NCBI RefSeq assembly: GCF_000504285.1
Contig: NZ_KI632511.1
Coordinates: forward strand, 4,213,372-4,277,371
Source: Actinospica robiniae DSM 44927
Lineage (GTDB): Bacteria; Actinomycetota; Actinomycetes; Streptomycetales; Catenulisporaceae
Direction: 5' to 3'
Length of the DNA: 64,000 nt
Shown here: in pieces, positions 19,106-24,954 of the stretch
Position numbering within the stretch: the first letter of the stretch is position 1
Layout: the number at the start of each line of letters is the position of its first letter
Notes under the pieces: generated by a model
The model's database searches: none
Told to the model about the DNA's origin: nothing
What the model saw: the letters and a program-made list of their open reading frames with translations, nothing else
Program-made: the position numbers and the translations under genes

Positions 19106-19864
19106 TCAGTCCAGCCGTGCGTCGGCGTATGCCGCCATCGCGTCGCGGTAGTACGCGGCCAGTCCGACGGCGATCCGGTCGTAGGTCGCGGTGAAGCGCT
19201 CATCGTCCACGTACATCAAGCCCAGGCATTTGTACGCGGCCGCGTCCGGCGTCCAGAACCGCGCGATGAACCGGTAGTGGCGGTCCGTCTCGTCCAGCAC
19301 GGCCGGGTCCTCGACCGGCGTGCCGGCGGCCATCAACTCGGCCATCCGGATCATCGCCGCGGTGTTCTCGCGGCCCATCTCCTGCTTGTCCTGCTCGCTG
19401 AGCGTGGCCGCGTAGGCCTGGGAGCGCGCGAACTGCGCCGGCCAGCGCTCCCGCGCCTCGTCCGCGTACTGCGTGTCGTCGAAGCCCTCGAACAGGTTCT
19501 CCGGCCGTTGGATGCCCACGGCTCTTCCTCCGGTTTCGTCCTCGAGTTCGCCGATGGTGCGCGCCACGGTCGCGGCGAGCCGGGAGAGCCGGTCGCGCTC
19601 GGCCAGCAGCATCCGCAGATGCTCGCGCAGCGCCTCGACCCGGTCCGTCTGCGCGTCGAGCACCTCGGCGATCCGCGGCAGCGGCAGGCCGAGCTCGCGC
19701 AGCACCATGATCCGCTGCAGCCGGAGCAGTTCGTCCTCGCCGTAGTGGCGGTAGCCGTTGGCCCCGACGAACGCCGGGGGCAGCAGGCCGATCTCGTCGT
19801 AGTGGCGCAGGGTGCGGGAGGTCAGGCCGGAGAACTTGGCGACCTCGGTGATCGACCAGGCCAT
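19106..19864 (-). CDS. MerR-family regulator with TipAS domain (TipA-like)
   Basis: 252 residues, the size of TipAL. An N-terminal MerR helix-turn-helix (WSITEVAKFSGLTSRTLRHYDEIGLLPP), a coiled-coil dimer helix (about 76-112), then a TipAS antibiotic-binding domain (YADEARERWPAQFARSQ, WTPDAAAYKCLGLMYVDDERF). Cys213 falls close to the thiopeptide-reactive Cys214 of Streptomyces lividans TipA; the exact alignment needs checking. TipA proteins activate their own gene and resistance genes when thiopeptides bind. The ATG at 19864 has GGAGGG 7 bases upstream. Confidence 0.9.
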   Translation of the reverse strand: MAWSITEVAKFSGLTSRTLRHYDEIGLLPPAFVGANGYRHYGEDELLRLQRIMVLRELGLPLPRIAEVLDAQTDRVEALREHLRMLLAERDRLSRLAATVARTIGELEDETGGRAVGIQRPENLFEGFDDTQYADEARERWPAQFARSQAYAATLSEQDKQEMGRENTAAMIRMAELMAAGTPVEDPAVLDETDRHYRFIARFWTPDAAAYKCLGLMYVDDERFTATYDRIAVGLAAYYRDAMAAYADARLD

Positions 19865-19938
19865 CGCTCCACCCTCCATCGGCGCGGCCGCAGGTCGCGG
19901 CCACGTCTTCGACGCTACGGGTTGACGCTACGGCAAGG

Positions 19939-20835
19939 TCAAGACGACTTGTGCCGGCGCACCGCGCGGATGCAGACCAGCCCGCCGAGGAACACGACCG
20001 CCACGACGGCGAGCACGCCGTCGGGCACGCCCTTGTCGCCCTCCGCGCTCGAGGCCACGGCCTGTGAGCTCGGCAGCACCTGGACGAAGTTGATCTTCAG
20101 CTCCGACGGTGTCGCCGAGGGCTTGGCCGAGTGCGTCTTGGGCGGCGCGGTCGAGGGCTTCGGGCTGTGCGAGGCCGGCGTGCTCAGCCGGACGACCGGG
20201 GCGGACTGCTTCTTGGTCGGGGTCAGGCTCGGAGTCGGGCTCGTCTTGGGCACGGCGGCCGGCTCGTAGTCCGCGAAGTTCAGGCCGGCCCCGAGGGTCT
20301 TGGCACCGCAGCTGTCGGCGTTGAAGGTGAGCTGGTCGACGTACTGGCCGCCCGGGCTGGTCGAGGTGAACTCGGTCTCGAGGTCGAGTGCGGCGCTGCT
20401 GTGCCCGCCGAGATCGATGCCGAGGTCCAGATTCGCGCTGCGCCAGGCCGCACCCGGCCCGGACAGGCCGTTCCAGGTCAGCCTGACGGGCTGCCAGGGC
20501 CCGCCGTCGACCCGGAAGGAGAGCTCCGGCGTGCCGGAACCGCCCGGGGTCGAGCTGCCTCCGGGCGGCGCGACGCTCAGCACCGCGCTGACGCCGTCCA
20601 TGTCGTACGAGCTGATGTCGGTCAGCCGGCCGCTGCCGAGCGCCGTCGCGTTCGTCGTGGTCACCACCGGCGGCTGGCCGTTGGGCGTGTAGAAGAGGGT
20701 GCCGAAGTCGCACCCGCCCTGCCCCTGCCCCCCGCCGTGCGCGGCCCAGGCGGGGGAGGCGCACAGCACCGCCACCGCTGTACAGGACGCCACGGCCGTC
20801 GCCGTCGTCAGCGCGCGCCGAACACCCACGGACAT
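19939..20835 (-). CDS. Secreted, C-terminally anchored hypothetical protein
   Basis: 298 residues: signal peptide (1-31, cleavage after AWA), a globular beta-rich part (35-185; TFNADSCGAKTL and related), a Ser/Thr/Pro/Lys-rich linker (about 190-245), then a membrane helix (VLAVVAVVFLGGLVCIRAV) and a basic tail RRHKSS. It would be displayed outside the membrane on a wall-spanning stalk; there is no LPxTG sortase motif. The ATG at 20835 follows a GTGGGGG site. The fold was not recognised and no partner genes are adjacent. Divergent from the Met-rich leader transcript. Confidence 0.75.
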   Translation of the reverse strand: MSVGVRRALTTATAVASCTAVAVLCASPAWAAHGGGQGQGGCDFGTLFYTPNGQPPVVTTTNATALGSGRLTDISSYDMDGVSAVLSVAPPGGSSTPGGSGTPELSFRVDGGPWQPVRLTWNGLSGPGAAWRSANLDLGIDLGGHSSAALDLETEFTSTSPGGQYVDQLTFNADSCGAKTLGAGLNFADYEPAAVPKTSPTPSLTPTKKQSAPVVRLSTPASHSPKPSTAPPKTHSAKPSATPSELKINFVQVLPSSQAVASSAEGDKGVPDGVLAVVAVVFLGGLVCIRAVRRHKSS

Positions 20836-20957
20836 GTCAAACCCCCACAGCTTGAGCCACCGGCGCAATCGTGGCACAGGACCAGGGCGCATCGGAATAC
20901 AGCTTTGACACGGCTTCGGAACAACAGTCCCGGGACAGAACGGCGCGAAAGCTGTGT

Positions 20958-20971
20958 TAGTCTGCCTTTCA
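20958..20971 (+). promoter_or_regulatory. -10 box for a leaderless start of the Met-rich leader peptide
   Basis: TAGTCT (20958-20963) lies seven bases before the ATG at 20971. GACA at 20934-20937 could be part of a -35. No Shine-Dalgarno sequence precedes the ATG. Confidence 0.5.
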
Positions 20972-21039
20972 TGCCGCGTACCACCGCCTTCGCCATGATG
21001 ATGCGAATGATGCCCCCGCTCCCGGAGGCGCTTCGCTAG
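20971..21039 (+). CDS. Methionine-rich leader peptide (22 residues)
   Basis: An ATG-to-TAG frame of 22 codons with six Met, including the initiator; codons 9-14 read MMMRMM. It ends in PPLPEALR and its stop sits inside a 16-bp palindrome (21030-21045). Thirty bases further on is a strong intrinsic terminator (21069-21099), and the segment CCGGAGG (21022-21028), within the peptide's codons 18-20, can pair with CCTCCGG (21074-21080) in the terminator's left arm. This is the layout of ribosome-mediated attenuation sensing charged tRNA-Met. Inferred; translation is not proved. Confidence 0.6.
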   Translation: MPRTTAFAMMMRMMPPLPEALR

Positions 21040-21045
21040 CGAAGC
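21030..21045 (+). repeat. 16-bp palindrome across the leader stop codon
   Basis: GCTTCGCTAGCGAAGC is self-complementary and contains the TAG stop of the leader peptide (21037-21039). In an attenuator it would be the pause or protector structure that a terminating ribosome disrupts. Confidence 0.6.
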
Positions 21046-21068
21046 CGTGCGCACGCGAGAAACGCGTC

Positions 21069-21099
21069 GGACCCCTCCGGAAACGGAGGGGTCCTTTTT
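21069..21099 (+). terminator. Intrinsic terminator (attenuator) upstream of the DUF62-like gene
   Basis: GGACCCCTCCG (21069-21079), GAAA loop, CGGAGGGGTCC (21084-21094), then TTTTT (21095-21099): a perfect 11-bp stem with a U tract, the clearest intrinsic terminator in the window. It lies between the leader peptide and the start at 21184, so it must be read through for that gene to be expressed from the upstream promoter. Confidence 0.85.
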
Positions 21100-21183
21100 C
21101 GTGTCTGCGAGCGCTCACCGCCCTCCTCGACCCCCCGCCGCTCCACCGCCCGCCTGACCGCTCGAAGCCGAAAGAGACCCGCC

Positions 21184-22032
21184 ATGGCGAACCCGCCGAT
21201 CATCTCGCTGACAGACTGCTGCGACCCGAACGCCGTGGCCCGGCAGAGCGCCCGGCTGGCCGCGCTCTTCGGCGCCGCGCCGACCGTGCTGCCGCTGGCC
21301 GGGCCGGACCCGGAGGGCGCCGCCGCCCTCACCCTGCTCGACGTGCTGCGCTCGACCGACCTGCTCGGCGGCGCCGGCCGGCCGACGGTGGTCCTGGTGA
21401 ACATCGCGCCGCGGGACGGGCACTGGCCCAACGGCGTGCCGTTCTGCTACTTCCGCTACCGGGACCACCTCGTCATCAGCACCCTCAATCCGCGCGTGCT
21501 CGAGCCGGTGCGCCGGCACCTGGGCGTGACCGCGGTGGAGGTCACCGACGTGCGCGAGGCGCTCGAAGCGGCCGCGGCGCAGTGGGCCGAGTTCACCCCG
21601 GCCGAGATCGACGAGATCGCGCGCACCCAGTTCCGCAGCCTCTGGTACGTGCCGCTGCTGGCCCGCTGGCTCGTGGACGGGCGCCCGGTGCCGGCGCGCA
21701 CCGAGGTGCTCGAGATCCCGGTGGCGTCGCGGGCGTTGCGGGTCGCGGTGGTGGACAACTTCGGCAACTGCAAGCTGGACGCCCCCGCGGCCGAACTGCC
21801 CGGCTACGCCGCCGGCGCCGAGGTGGAGCTGACCGACGCGGCCGGCGCGGTGCACCGGGTGCGCTGCTACGACCGGCTGCCGGACGTGCCGCGCGGCGAG
21901 GCCGGCGTGGTCACCGGCAGCTCCGGCATCGGCTTCGCGGAACTGGTGGTGCGCGGCGGTTCCGCGGCCGCGCTCTTCGGCTTGCGCGAGGGCGACCAGG
22001 TCTGCGCGCCGGTCCCGGAGCTCGTCGGCTGA
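21184..22032 (+). CDS. Divergent DUF62 family protein (SAM hydrolase/halogenase fold)
   Basis: 282 residues. The C-terminal domain fits the SAM hydroxide adenosyltransferase family: VAVVDNFGNCKLD aligns with the family's IDDFGN segment, and GFAELVVRGGSAAALFGLREGDQV aligns with the family's closing strand and helix. The N-terminal half is shifted from the norm: the family's TTDFG is SLTDCC, IDPGVG is IAPRDG, and the FHGRD motif with the catalytic His is QFRSL. The Asp-Arg-His triad of SAM hydrolases is therefore not preserved, so activity on SAM is uncertain. It sits behind a Met-rich leader and terminator; its own ribosome site (AAGAG) is weak. Confidence 0.65.
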   Translation: MANPPIISLTDCCDPNAVARQSARLAALFGAAPTVLPLAGPDPEGAAALTLLDVLRSTDLLGGAGRPTVVLVNIAPRDGHWPNGVPFCYFRYRDHLVISTLNPRVLEPVRRHLGVTAVEVTDVREALEAAAAQWAEFTPAEIDEIARTQFRSLWYVPLLARWLVDGRPVPARTEVLEIPVASRALRVAVVDNFGNCKLDAPAAELPGYAAGAEVELTDAAGAVHRVRCYDRLPDVPRGEAGVVTGSSGIGFAELVVRGGSAAALFGLREGDQVCAPVPELVG

Positions 22033-22303: not shown

Positions 22304-23221
22304 TTGTCCTCCTCCCGGCCCCGCCGTCTCCTGCCCCGCCGCACTCGTGCCGCCCTCGGCCTCGCCGCCGCCGCGTCGGTCGCGCTGACCGCCTCCGCGT
22401 GCGCGCCCAAGGCCTCGACCACGTCGGCCGCGGCCGCCTCCAGCACTTCGGCTTCGGCGCTCAGCTGCACGCCGGCCACCCTGGCGCTGTACAAAAAGGG
22501 CCAGCTGACCATCGCCACCGACTCCCCGGCCTACTCGCCCTGGTTCGACAACAACGACCCGTCGGACGGCAAGGGCTTCGAGTCCGCCGTGGCCTACGCC
22601 GTCGCCCAGCAGCTCGGCTTCAGCAAGGACCAGGTGAAGTGGGTCGTCGAAGGGTTCGACGACTCCTACGCGCCGGGCAGCAAGAGCTTCGACTTCGACA
22701 TCAACGAGGTCTCCATCACCCCGCAGCGCGCGCAGTCGGTGGACTTCTCCACCGGCTACTACACCGCGAACCAGGGCGTGCTGGTGCTGAACAAGTCCAA
22801 GTACGCCGGGGCCACCTCGCTCGCGCAGCTCAAGGACGCCAAGATCGGCGTGCAGGTGGGCACCACGAGCTACCAGGCCGTCAACGACATCCTCAAGCCC
22901 AGCAAGCAGGTCTCGGTGTTCAACTCCACCGACGACGAGGTCTCCGCGCTGCAGAACGGCCAGGTCGACGCGATCGTCACGGACATGCCGACGGTCTTCT
23001 ACCTGGCCAGCGCGGAGCTGACCGGCGGCAAGATCCTCGGCCAGTTCAGCTACGACGGCGACAGCGCGCCCGAGCAGTTCGGCCTGCTGCTGGCCAAGGG
23101 CAGCGGCCTGACCGCCTGCGTCGACCAGGCGATCGCCAAGCTGACCTCCAGCGGCGAGCTCAAGACCATCACCGACCAGTGGCTCTCGGCCTCCGCCGAC
23201 GTCCCCGAGCTGAAGCAGTAG
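22304..23221 (+). CDS. Polar amino acid ABC transporter, substrate-binding lipoprotein
   Basis: 305 residues. A lipoprotein signal with lipobox LTASAC, a Ser/Thr/Ala linker, then an SBP_bac_3 domain (LTIATDSPAYSPWF, GFESAVAYAVAQQLGF, FDFDINEVSITPQRAQSVDFSTGYY, IGVQVGTTSYQAV). It captures an amino acid of the Glu/Gln/Asp type outside the membrane and hands it to the permease encoded next; the ligand is not identified. The TTG start at 22304 is supported by GAAGG seven bases upstream. A TTGACA (22105-22110) lies in the 271-bp gap before it without a good -10. Confidence 0.92.
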   Translation: MSSSRPRRLLPRRTRAALGLAAAASVALTASACAPKASTTSAAAASSTSASALSCTPATLALYKKGQLTIATDSPAYSPWFDNNDPSDGKGFESAVAYAVAQQLGFSKDQVKWVVEGFDDSYAPGSKSFDFDINEVSITPQRAQSVDFSTGYYTANQGVLVLNKSKYAGATSLAQLKDAKIGVQVGTTSYQAVNDILKPSKQVSVFNSTDDEVSALQNGQVDAIVTDMPTVFYLASAELTGGKILGQFSYDGDSAPEQFGLLLAKGSGLTACVDQAIAKLTSSGELKTITDQWLSASADVPELKQ

Positions 23222-23308: not shown

Positions 23309-24214
23309 GTGAGCGAATATACCGCGGCCGCGCCCACGCCGACGCCGACTCCGGCCGGCACCGGCGGGACCGGATACACCAAGAGCGCCGTCCAGTTGGA
23401 GCGCGAACGCTACCGGGCGGCGCGCAAACGCCGGGAACGGCTGATCGCCGGCGTGTGCGGGCTCGTCCTGATCGTCGTCGTGGCCGTGGCCGTGGTGTCC
23501 TCGCCCGGCTGGGACCTGGTGCACCAGAAGTTCCTCAACGGCACCGAGTTCCGCCAGCACTTCGGCCAGATCCTGCACGGCTTCTGGCTCAATGTGCAGA
23601 TGTTCGTGGTCTCCGAAGTGCTGATCCTGGTCCTGGGCCTGGCGATCGCGCTGACCCGGGTGACCAGGGCGCCGGGCCTGGCGCCGATCCGTTGGGCCGC
23701 GACCCTGTACGTGGACGTGTTCCGCGGCGTGCCGACGCTGCTGCTGGTGTTCCTGATCGGCTTCGGCCTGCCCGCGTTGCAGTTGCAGGGCACGCCCTCG
23801 TCCCCGGTCGTGCTCGGCTGCATCGCCCTGGTGCTCTCCTACGGCGCGTACGTCGGCGAGGTGTTCCGGGCCGGTCTGAACTCGGTGCACCCGGCACAGC
23901 GCAACGCGGCCAAGGCACTCGGGCTGAACGAGCACCAGACCCTGCGGCACGTGGTCCTGCCGCAGGCGGTCCGCAACGTGGTGCCCCCGCTGCTCAACGA
24001 CTTCATCTCGCTGCAGAAGGACACCGCGCTGGTCGCCACGCTCGGCCCGCTCGAGGCGCTGCGACAGGCCCAGATCGCCTCGTACGCCGACTTCAACTAC
24101 ACCCCTTACCTCGCCGCGGCAGTGCTCTTCATCGCGGTGACGATCCCGATCGCCCGGTACGCCGACTGGTTGCAGCGCAGGGCGATCGAGCGGCAGTGGG
24201 CGGAGGCACGATGA
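23309..24214 (+). CDS. Polar amino acid ABC transporter, permease
   Basis: 301 residues. A cytoplasmic Thr/Pro-rich N-terminus (1-45), then about five to six membrane helices, with the HisM-type permease core and EAA motif (YGAYVGEVFRAGLNSVHPAQ, AAKALGLNEHQTLRHVVLPQ) and NDFISLQKDTALVATLG. It forms the pore for the amino acid importer with the flanking binding protein and ATPase. GTG start with GAGGTGG upstream; its stop overlaps the next ATG (ATGA). Confidence 0.93.
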   Translation: MSEYTAAAPTPTPTPAGTGGTGYTKSAVQLERERYRAARKRRERLIAGVCGLVLIVVVAVAVVSSPGWDLVHQKFLNGTEFRQHFGQILHGFWLNVQMFVVSEVLILVLGLAIALTRVTRAPGLAPIRWAATLYVDVFRGVPTLLLVFLIGFGLPALQLQGTPSSPVVLGCIALVLSYGAYVGEVFRAGLNSVHPAQRNAAKALGLNEHQTLRHVVLPQAVRNVVPPLLNDFISLQKDTALVATLGPLEALRQAQIASYADFNYTPYLAAAVLFIAVTIPIARYADWLQRRAIERQWAEAR

Positions 24215-24954
24215 ACGAGGCGTTGCTGCGCATCAGAGGTCTGCGCAAGCAGTACGACGGCCGGACGGTGCTCGAGTCGGTCGACCTGGACGTGTCCGAG
24301 CACCAGGTCGTCTGCCTGATCGGCGGCTCGGGCTCGGGCAAGTCGACCCTGCTGCGGTGCGTCGACCTGCTCGACACCGTGGACGACGGCACTATCCACC
24401 TCGGCGAGACCGAACTGACCGATCCGCGTCTCGACGCGGACGCGGCCCGGCGGCGCATCGGCGTGGTCTTCCAGTCCTACAACCTGTTCCCGAACATGAA
24501 CGTGCTCGCCAACGTGACGCTGGCGCCGCGCAGGGCGCACAAGACGCCGCGGCGCGACGCGGAGCTGTACGCGATGGAGCTGCTCAGCCGGCTGGGCCTG
24601 GCCGAGAAGGCGAAGGACTACCCCGACCGGCTCTCCGGCGGCCAGCAGCAGCGCGTCGCCATCGCGCGGGCCCTGGCGACCCAGCCGGAACTGCTGCTGT
24701 TCGACGAGATCACCGCCGCGCTCGACCCGGAGCTGGTCGGCGAGGTGCTCGACGTGGTCACCGACCTCAAGCAGCGCGGCCTGACGATCCTGATGGCCAC
24801 GCACGAGATGGGCTTCGCCCGGCACGCCGCGGACCACGTCTGCTTCCTGGAAGGTGGCGTGATCCGGGAGCAAGGCACGGCCGAGCAGGTGCTCAGCGAC
24901 CCGCAGCACCCGAGCACGCAGCGTTTCCTGGCCCGGGTGCTGGAACACAAGTAG
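24211..24954 (+). CDS. Polar amino acid ABC transporter, ATP-binding protein
   Basis: 247 residues: Walker A GGSGSGKST (38-46), Q-loop FQSYNLFPNMNVLANV, signature [16 protein letters not shown], Walker B LLLFDEITAALDPEL, H-loop ATHEMGFAR. Matches the GlnQ/HisP class. FDEITAALDPE carries Ile where FDEPTSALDPE is usual, a variant also seen in actinobacterial homologues. The ATG overlaps the permease stop by 4 bases. It ends 13 bp before a convergent gene. Confidence 0.94.
   Translation: MNEALLRIRGLRKQYDGRTVLESVDLDVSEHQVVCLIGGSGSGKSTLLRCVDLLDTVDDGTIHLGETELTDPRLDADAARRRIGVVFQSYNLFPNMNVLANVTLAPRRAHKTPRRDAELYAMELLSRLGLAEKAKDYPDRLSGGQQQRVAIARALATQPELLLFDEITAALDPELVGEVLDVVTDLKQRGLTILMATHEMGFARHAADHVCFLEGGVIREQGTAEQVLSDPQHPSTQRFLARVLEHK

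What the first reader, a model, noticed from the sequence alone, without database searches (positions are those of the whole stretch)
20958..21184. Methionine-rich leader peptide with terminator and competing antiterminator upstream of a DUF62-like gene
A 22-codon frame with MMMRMM at codons 9-14 is followed by a perfect terminator (stem 21069-21079/21084-21094 plus TTTTT). CCGGAGG (21022-21028), just past the Met codons, is exactly complementary to CCTCCGG (21074-21080) in the terminator's left arm, and the stop codon sits inside a 16-bp palindrome (21030-21045). A ribosome stalled on Met codons would leave the antiterminator free; one that reaches the stop would block it and allow termination. 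That is tRNA-Met-sensing attenuation, which I do not know to be described in actinobacteria, and the gene behind it belongs to a SAM-linked fold.
Basis: partly seen in the sequence, partly recalled or inferred. Interest (0 to 1): 0.8.

Follow-up and report, generated by a model that had tools for sequence, protein, structure and literature searches.

The report
Methionine-codon attenuator before SAM-cleaving-type gene
A short stretch of RNA in front of a SAM-hydrolase-like gene seems to let the ribosome, pausing at a methionine codon in a tiny leader peptide, decide whether the gene is switched on, and the same device recurs in several groups of soil actinobacteria.

Summary
It is not chance: 44 of 45 actinobacterial homologues of the gene (Actinospica, Streptomyces, Kitasatospora, Streptacidiphilus, Jiangella, Kribbella, Catellatospora) carry such a leader. 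In 48 of 48 leaders a start codon lies 6-8 nt behind a TANNNT box, so probably leaderless, in frame with a shared core, NTG-CGA-ATG-NTG. Folding gives an antiterminator when a ribosome is placed at the core; the full switch is clear in the window's own branch and weaker in Jiangella and Kribbella. I read it as a ribosome-mediated transcription attenuator.

What it senses is less sure. Kribbella and Catellatospora have only 1-2 internal Met codons. The invariant unit is CGA-ATG; CGA is 9 of 316 Arg codons in 16 downstream genes. The methionine-transporter leader metL, already proposed in Streptomyces lividans, has CGA-ATG in 127 of 128 matches. Met-tRNA sensing through a CGA-AUG codon pair is my preferred reading, untested.

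The parts
20955..20963 (+). extended -10 box TGtTAGTCT; with a 7-nt spacer it puts the likely transcription start at or next to the A of the leader ATG (leaderless)
   Evidence: sequence; TANNNT 6-8 nt before the start in 48 of 48 leaders; transcription start itself not measured; no -35 consensus found
20971..21039 (+). leader peptide ORF MPRTTAFAMMMRMMPPLPEALR*, stop included
   Evidence: a TANNNT-spaced start in frame with the core in 48 of 48 leaders, out of frame in 0 of 48
20995..21012 (+). sensor core ATG ATG ATG CGA ATG ATG; invariant CGA-ATG at 21004-21009
   Evidence: CGA in 48 of 48 leaders against 9 of 316 Arg codons in 16 downstream genes
20976..20981 (+). P1 5' strand (GCGTAC), pairs with 21047-21052 (GTGCGC)
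   Evidence: one column pair A-U in 19 and G-C in 2 of 23 distinct rows
21003..21007 (+). protector 5' strand GCGAA (inside the Met/Arg codons), pairs with TTCGC 21032-21036
   Evidence: folding without ribosome; invariant in 26 rows, so no covariation evidence
21023..21028 (+). antiterminator strand CGGAGG, pairs with 21074-21079 CCTCCG
   Evidence: 6 of 6 pairs invariant in 23 distinct rows
21030..21045 (+). P2 hairpin GCTTCG-CTAG-CGAAGC holding the stop codon
21053..21067 (+). P3 hairpin ACGCG-AGAAA-CGCGT
   Evidence: the equivalent helix in the alignment has one pair with 14 G-C, 6 A-U and 3 unpaired of 23 distinct rows
21069..21099 (+). intrinsic terminator, 11-bp stem, GAAA loop, T5
   Evidence: hairpins with T-rich tails also before the gene in the other lineages
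21184..22032 (+). SAM hydroxide adenosyltransferase-like (DUF62) gene
   Evidence: Pfam PF20257 5e-12; AlphaFold pLDDT 90.2; Foldseek 2zbv E 2.8e-13; Z 19.7
22304..23221 (+). amino-acid-type ABC substrate-binding protein (SBP_bac_3)
   Evidence: order HAT-SBP-permease-ATPase kept in Streptomycetaceae and Actinospica-type loci as far as they reach
23309..24214 (+). ABC permease
24211..24954 (+). ABC ATPase

Best explanation
A ribosome-mediated transcription attenuator that probably reads the supply of methionyl-tRNA. RNA polymerase starts at the leader ATG; a ribosome loads on the leaderless end and translates the peptide. If it stalls at the CGA-AUG core, the protector and P1 strands are covered, CGGAGG (21023-21028) is left free, pairs with CCTCCG (21074-21079) and the terminator cannot form, so the SAM-hydrolase-like gene and probably the ABC importer are transcribed. 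If the ribosome reaches the stop codon it covers CGGAGG and the terminator forms. With no ribosome, the core and P1 pair with downstream RNA, CGGAGG is held in a protector hairpin and the terminator forms. Shown by computation: conserved ORF with a leaderless-type start, invariant CGA-AUG core, terminator, competing folds. Inferred: that the stall is caused by lack of Met-tRNA; [quoted passage not shown] that the operon gains methionine, for example by importing and splitting a sulfonium amino acid.
For: 44 of 45 actinobacterial loci have the leader. 48 of 48 leaders have TANNNT-N6..8-start in frame with the core, 0 of 48 out of frame. Core NTG-CGA-ATG-NTG kept although flanks differ among lineages. 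Folding with ribosome masks: a core stall pairs 7-12 nt of the terminator's left arm upstream in the 45 leaders and, by my count on the drawn folds, 7, 9 and 11 nt in the 3; with the ribosome at the stop the best fold of the rest is only -0.5 to -10.1 kcal/mol. Shuffling the stretch between core and terminator: the native difference between stalled and free RNA is reached by at most 5% of 200 shuffles in 14 of 21 leaders tried. Link to Met/SAM: the gene has the SAM hydrolase fold; in Catellatospora it is followed by a second metK copy; Met codons abound in three of the five leader types; the metNIQ leader metL has CGA-ATG in 127 of 128 matches and precedes a MetN-like gene in the one locus checked.
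Against: Only 1-2 internal Met codons in Kribbella (L035 reads CTG CGA ATG CTG) and 2 in Catellatospora. The invariance of CGA says that something beyond Met content is selected. A metK neighbour would consume Met, which does not fit a simple Met-supply logic. Shuffle control: 0 of 3 Jiangella and 3 of 6 Kribbella leaders pass at 5%; taken alone, arm pairing in the stalled state passes in 9 of 21 leaders and its energy in 15 of 21, and the freedom of the arm without a ribosome is unusual in only 2 of 21, so the 'no ribosome' state is weakly supported. In Jiangella and Kribbella the arm is partly paired in the 'stop' (up to 7 nt) and 'no ribosome' (up to 9 nt) states. The antiterminator helix is invariant in the Streptomycetaceae/Actinospica rows, so no covariation speaks for it there; the number of pairs with double changes is no higher than in shuffles (reached by 455 of 500 and 148 of 500), although the covariation score is (0 of 500 and 7 of 500). 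No -35 consensus was found. No expression data.
Confidence: 0.62

Rival explanations
1. Same attenuator, different signal: the nascent peptide [ML]-R-M-[ML] or the CGA-AUG pair arrests the ribosome in response to a small molecule (SAM, an epimer of it, or an antibiotic), not to Met-tRNA level.
For: Only R-M is invariant, with one codon choice, CGA; the flanking Met codons exchange with Leu CTG in Kribbella, Catellatospora and Jiangella, and in metL in 8 of 128 matches. The gene has a SAM-enzyme fold.
Against: Peptide arrest does not explain one fixed synonymous codon; Streptomyces, Actinospica and Jiangella leaders have 3-5 internal Met codons.
Confidence: 0.17
2. Ribosome-speed sensor: the CGA (inosine-wobble) codon followed by AUG pauses ribosomes under general slow translation, with no amino-acid specificity.
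For: CGA is rare (9 of 316 Arg codons) and invariant; CGA repeats stall yeast ribosomes through wobble decoding, and CGA in the P site is held to destabilise elongation (PMC6301793, passages read).
Against: In the searches made, the core occurs in leader form only before this gene (10 of 11 places, 4 of 10, the rest not leaders); no bacterial data seen.
Confidence: 0.1
3. A riboswitch-like RNA whose conserved core is an aptamer; the ORF is incidental.
For: Strong nucleotide conservation, also outside the ORF.
Against: 48 of 48 in-frame leaderless-type starts at five different distances from the core (18-30 nt), ATG in one group and GTG in the others; no Rfam match at gathering score in the window and only three unrelated weak ones at E<=10 around the leader.
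Confidence: 0.06
4. Ordinary terminator plus chance ORF; the gene has its own promoter downstream.
For: 84 nt lie between terminator and gene; no promoter was mapped.
Against: The gene upstream is on the other strand, so the leader transcript is the only evident one for this terminator to end; conservation in 44 of 45 loci.
Confidence: 0.05

Closest known systems
Ribosome-mediated attenuators (trpL/leuS type), including the actinobacterial ones of Seliverstov 2005 (PMC1262725, passages read)
   Same: short leader ORF, regulatory codons, antiterminator and terminator that exclude each other
   Different: Met codons with an invariant CGA before the Met; that paper reports no conserved RNA structures at methionine operons in the Actinobacteria it examined
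metL leader of metNIQ, Streptomyces lividans (PMC8079986, passages read)
   Same: leaderless, methionine-linked operon; its relatives contain CGA-ATG
   Different: 2 internal Met codons; no typical Rho-independent terminator according to that paper; I see no shared sequence beyond TGNCGAATG or CGAATG
Polycysteine leaderless short ORFs of mycobacteria (Canestrari 2020; seen only as a reference-list entry, content recalled)
   Same: leaderless short ORF whose codons sense an amino acid
   Different: cysteine; recalled to work without an intrinsic terminator
SAM hydroxide adenosyltransferase / DUF62 enzymes and their halogenase relatives (PH0463, MJ1651, SalL, fluorinase)
   Same: fold over nearly the whole length, conserved DNFGN motif in the subfamily
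   Different: 14-25% identity; Pfam N-terminal domain not matched at E<=0.001; activity unknown

Membership tests
Ribosome-mediated transcription attenuator | short translated leader ORF with regulatory codons | tested here: inconclusive
   start in frame with the core in 48 of 48, Met content variable; translation not measured
Ribosome-mediated transcription attenuator | terminator and mutually exclusive antiterminator | tested here: met
   for the window and its branch: and 11 of 12 pass the shuffle control; in Jiangella 0 of 3 and Kribbella 3 of 6 pass; computed only
Ribosome-mediated transcription attenuator | stall site placed so that a ribosome there frees, and a ribosome at the stop covers, the antiterminator strand | tested here: met
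   mask calculation for the window and Streptomyces group (0-1 arm bases paired with the ribosome at the stop); footprint size assumed; less clean in Jiangella and Kribbella
Ribosome-mediated transcription attenuator | read-through responds to charged tRNA | not testable with these tools
   needs experiment
SAM riboswitches and T-box (Rfam) | match to the family covariance model | tested here: not met
   no match at gathering score in 64 kb; at E<=10 in 20900-21200 only three unrelated families
SAM hydroxide adenosyltransferase (DUF62) | fold and C-terminal domain | tested here: met
   PF20257 5e-12; Foldseek 2.8e-13; Z 19.7, rmsd 3.6 over 243 residues
SAM hydroxide adenosyltransferase (DUF62) | SAM hydrolysis | not testable with these tools
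   needs enzyme assay

The most novel reading that the evidence does not exclude
The CGA-AUG codon pair is a dedicated methionine-starvation sensor in actinobacteria: an inosine-adenosine wobble pair in the P site makes the next AUG unusually dependent on Met-tRNA supply, so a single Met codon is enough, and this unit is shared by two seemingly unrelated leaders (SAM-hydrolase operon and metNIQ).
Probability: 0.33. Interest if true: 0.8.

Novelty: new variant of a known kind. Interest (0 to 1): 0.64.

Why it matters
It would give actinobacteria a translation-coupled methionine control tied to SAM turnover, offer a physiological context for DUF62 enzymes, whose role is in doubt (PMC12120602, abstract seen), and make a sharp prediction: a synonymous change of one Arg codon (CGA to CGC) should spoil regulation. 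If so, a rare codon before the sensed codon is part of the sensor, which would change how single-codon attenuators are searched for.

Tried and rejected
SAM riboswitch or T-box: no Rfam match. Plasmid-borne copies: no tblastn match with the Catellatospora protein; one 33-base match by blastn of the leader, in a Rhizobium plasmid, E 0.1. Same core elsewhere: ATGATGCGNATGATGCC in 391 order genomes gave 11 places, 10 before the gene, 1 in what looks like unrelated coding DNA. MTGCGAATGMTG in 4 genomes gave 10 places, 1 per genome before the gene. Wider CGA-ATG leaders: 0.8 Mb of one genome of the order (G023) had 77 CGAATG places, 40 outside predicted genes; metL was the only one that I recognised as a leader; two other short frames with a gene within 200 nt (27 and 54 codons) were not followed up. 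So the pair is not shown to be general. A first scan that required TANNNT found 28 short ORFs, none with CGA-ATG, and missed metL. Gene in the Catellatospora family: 1 of 200 genomes, Catellatospora itself; phylum sample: 1 of 396, the window's own; relatives: 4 of 147. The 21 non-actinobacterial relatives (L050-L070) have no CGAATG in the up to 300 nt upstream. Frameshift at CGA-AUG, considered by eye: a +1 shift meets a stop at once in Streptomyces but not in Jiangella or metL; dropped. Macrolide-type arrest at an MRL-like motif was considered from memory only; the genes are not resistance genes. NCBIfam has no model matching metL, the Streptomyces leader or the Jiangella leader at E<=5; the Kribbella leader was too short to test.

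Print: the searches list open-licence papers only; I read passages of PMC8079986, PMC1262725, PMC2965389 and PMC13236596 and saw the rest as listings. In what I saw, metL is the only methionine leader proposed in actinobacteria; subscription papers are not covered.

Rows dropped before counting the 48 leaders: repeats, judged by identical leader and flank (L005 and L071 of L003; L006 and L072 of L002; L073 and L082 of the window; L075, L076, L077, L080, L081 of loci already held), and L049 (truncated gene, no leader). L046 and L048 were kept although their gene matches are broken in pieces; in L046 a 1-nt gap removes the leader's stop.

Full report
What is there. The window lies in a 9.92-Mb chromosome whose closest named relatives among the hits are two Actinospica species. 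A TGtTAGTCT box ends 7 nt before the leader ATG at 20971. The leader is followed by a hairpin around its stop codon, a third hairpin (21053-21067), an 11-bp terminator with T5, and at 21184 a gene of the SAM hydroxide adenosyltransferase (DUF62) type. The gene upstream is on the other strand. Its longest frame runs into the leader (GTG at 21054); I take the ATG at 20836 as its start by judgement.

The downstream genes. The gene product matches Pfam SAM_HAT_C (5e-12) but not the N-terminal domain. AlphaFold with a 28-row alignment gives pLDDT 90.2. 30 Foldseek matches have E<=0.001: they are titled DUF62, SAM hydrolase or SAM hydroxide adenosyltransferase, chlorinase or SalL, or fluorinase, apart from Thermotoga, Thermus and Pyrococcus entries whose titles name no function (the Thermus chain is called a fluorinating-enzyme homologue). 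The best VIA-align match has Z 19.7, rmsd 3.6 over 243 residues. A binding protein, a permease and an ATPase of the amino-acid ABC family follow. The same order holds in the Streptomycetaceae and Actinospica-type loci as far as they reach; L002 and L006 end before it, and L025-L045 (Catellatospora, Jiangella, Kribbella) show no match to the ABC genes within the stretches held. In Catellatospora the next gene is a metK (TIGR01034, 5e-155), one of two in that genome. In the two Jiangella loci checked the next gene is a LytR-CpsA-Psr protein, and in the Kribbella locus checked it lies on the other strand; these say nothing about methionine.

Conservation. One search gave 66 loci, 45 of them actinobacterial. 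44 of the 45 have the leader; L049 appears to have lost the first part of the gene and the leader. The leaders fall into Streptomyces-type (MQHTATLAMMRMMPPPPEALR), Actinospica-type, Jiangella (MTHGQAMMRMLHSMCGRSMLA), Kribbella (MTWYAAMRMLSPRCGGL) and Catellatospora (MTSPEPQPSLRMMRPVGRETAGA). I worked with 48 leaders from what I judge to be different genomes (24, 3, 6, 14, 1). One search, which looked in frame only, found a TANNNT box 6-8 nt before an ATG or GTG in all 48, which looked in all three frames, found such a start in frame in 48 and out of frame in none. The start-to-core distance takes five values, 18, 21, 24, 27 and 30 nt. A translated, leaderless ORF predicts this; an RNA aptamer does not.

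The core. All 48 share [AC]TG CGA ATG [AC]TG. CGA is 9 of 316 Arg codons in 16 of the downstream genes. Internal Met codons number 4 in the Streptomyces type, 5 in the Actinospica type, 3-5 in Jiangella, 2 in Catellatospora and 1-2 in Kribbella, where L035 reads L-R-M-L. So Met richness is real in three of five types, but the invariant unit is CGA-ATG. The metL leader of metNIQ, proposed in S. lividans (PMC8079986, passages), had a relative in 24 of 41 related genomes; the 12 loci fetched all show CGA-ATG. A pattern with the third base of the Arg codon left open matched in 128 of 245 genomes: 127 CGA, 1 CGC; 8 of the 128 have CTG in place of the preceding ATG. The pattern fixes neighbouring bases, so the count is conditional on them, and the species are related. 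One metL locus was checked and its next gene is MetN-like (TIGR02314, 9.7e-113, below that family's cut-off; Pfam NIL domain).

Structure. I folded each transcript up to the terminator's left arm with nothing masked, with all RNA up to 12 nt past the core masked, and with all RNA up to 12 nt from the first base of the stop masked (45 of 48 leaders; the other 3). In the core-stall state 7-12 nt of the left arm pair upstream; in the Streptomyces group this is mainly GGAGG:CCTCC closing two hairpins. In the stop state 0-1 arm bases pair upstream in the Streptomyces and Actinospica groups, but up to 7 in Jiangella and Kribbella, in weak folds. Without a ribosome the arm has 0-3 such bases in the Streptomyces and Actinospica groups and up to 9 elsewhere. 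Control (21 of the 48 leaders, 200 shuffles each of the stretch between core and terminator): the native difference between stalled and free RNA was reached by at most 5% of shuffles in 11 of 12 Streptomyces/Actinospica, 3 of 6 Kribbella and 0 of 3 Jiangella leaders. Single measures are weaker: arm pairing in the stalled state passes at 5% in 9 of 21, its energy in 15 of 21, and arm freedom without a ribosome in 2 of 21. So the switch is well supported in the window's own branch and only suggestive elsewhere. In the Streptomycetaceae-Actinospica alignment (26 rows, 23 distinct) the antiterminator helix never varies; P3 has one pair with 14 G-C and 6 A-U, and P1 one pair with 19 A-U and 2 G-C. 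The covariation score exceeds the shuffles (0 and 7 of 500 reach it), the number of doubly changed pairs does not (455 and 148 of 500). Across lineages the antiterminator uses different sequences in a similar place, for example TCGGAGG:CCTCCGA in Kribbella L042 and TCGGGA:TCCCGA in Catellatospora.

How it most likely works. As in trpL-type attenuators: stall at the core gives antitermination, completion or no translation gives termination. I would put that part alone at about 0.85. The whole statement, with Met-tRNA as the signal, I put at 0.62: it rests on the Met codons of three leader types, on the SAM/Met character of the genes, and on the parallel with metL. The invariant CGA suggests that an inosine-wobble codon in the P site slows acceptance of the next tRNA; effects of this kind are reported for CGA pairs in yeast (PMC6301793, passages), and for bacteria it is only my idea. 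A role of the operon in Met supply (import of a sulfonium amino acid and its cleavage) is inference; a metK neighbour in Catellatospora sits awkwardly with it and would fit SAM recycling better.

Compared with what is known. Mechanistically it works like ribosome-mediated attenuation. Seliverstov 2005 (PMC1262725, passages) found no conserved RNA structures at methionine operons in the Actinobacteria examined; metL (2021) is the one methionine leader I saw proposed there. I saw no description of a leader before DUF62 genes in the searches, most of whose papers I saw as listings only. The distribution is patchy: by exact pattern 10 of 391 genomes of the order have it.

Noticed in passing
L050-L070 (21 loci): The same DUF62 subfamily, 29-40% identical, occurs in MAGs mostly of candidate-phyla bacteria, with no CGAATG in the up to 300 nt upstream.
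   Followed up: partly
L025:6012-7187: Catellatospora carries a second metK copy (62% identical to the other one) directly behind the DUF62-type gene.
   Followed up: partly
L096-L107: The metNIQ leader metL has a block GGTGCTCGTTGTATGTGYCGAATG that is exact in 8 of the 12 loci, larger than its Met codons alone would need.
   Followed up: partly
L049:4300-5474: Kitasatospora sp. MBT63 appears to have lost the N-terminal part of the gene and the whole leader but keeps the ABC genes: a possible natural deletion.
   Followed up: no
Kribbella leaders (L029-L045): Length changes behind the core move the stop codon, so the peptide's end is not conserved there.
   Followed up: no
window 19106-19879 (-): MerR-type regulator with a TipAS antibiotic-recognition domain.
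   Followed up: no
window 19939-20836 (-): Divergent gene next to the leader with no Pfam or NCBIfam match at E<=0.001; also beside the leader in one close relative, 61% identical.
   Followed up: no
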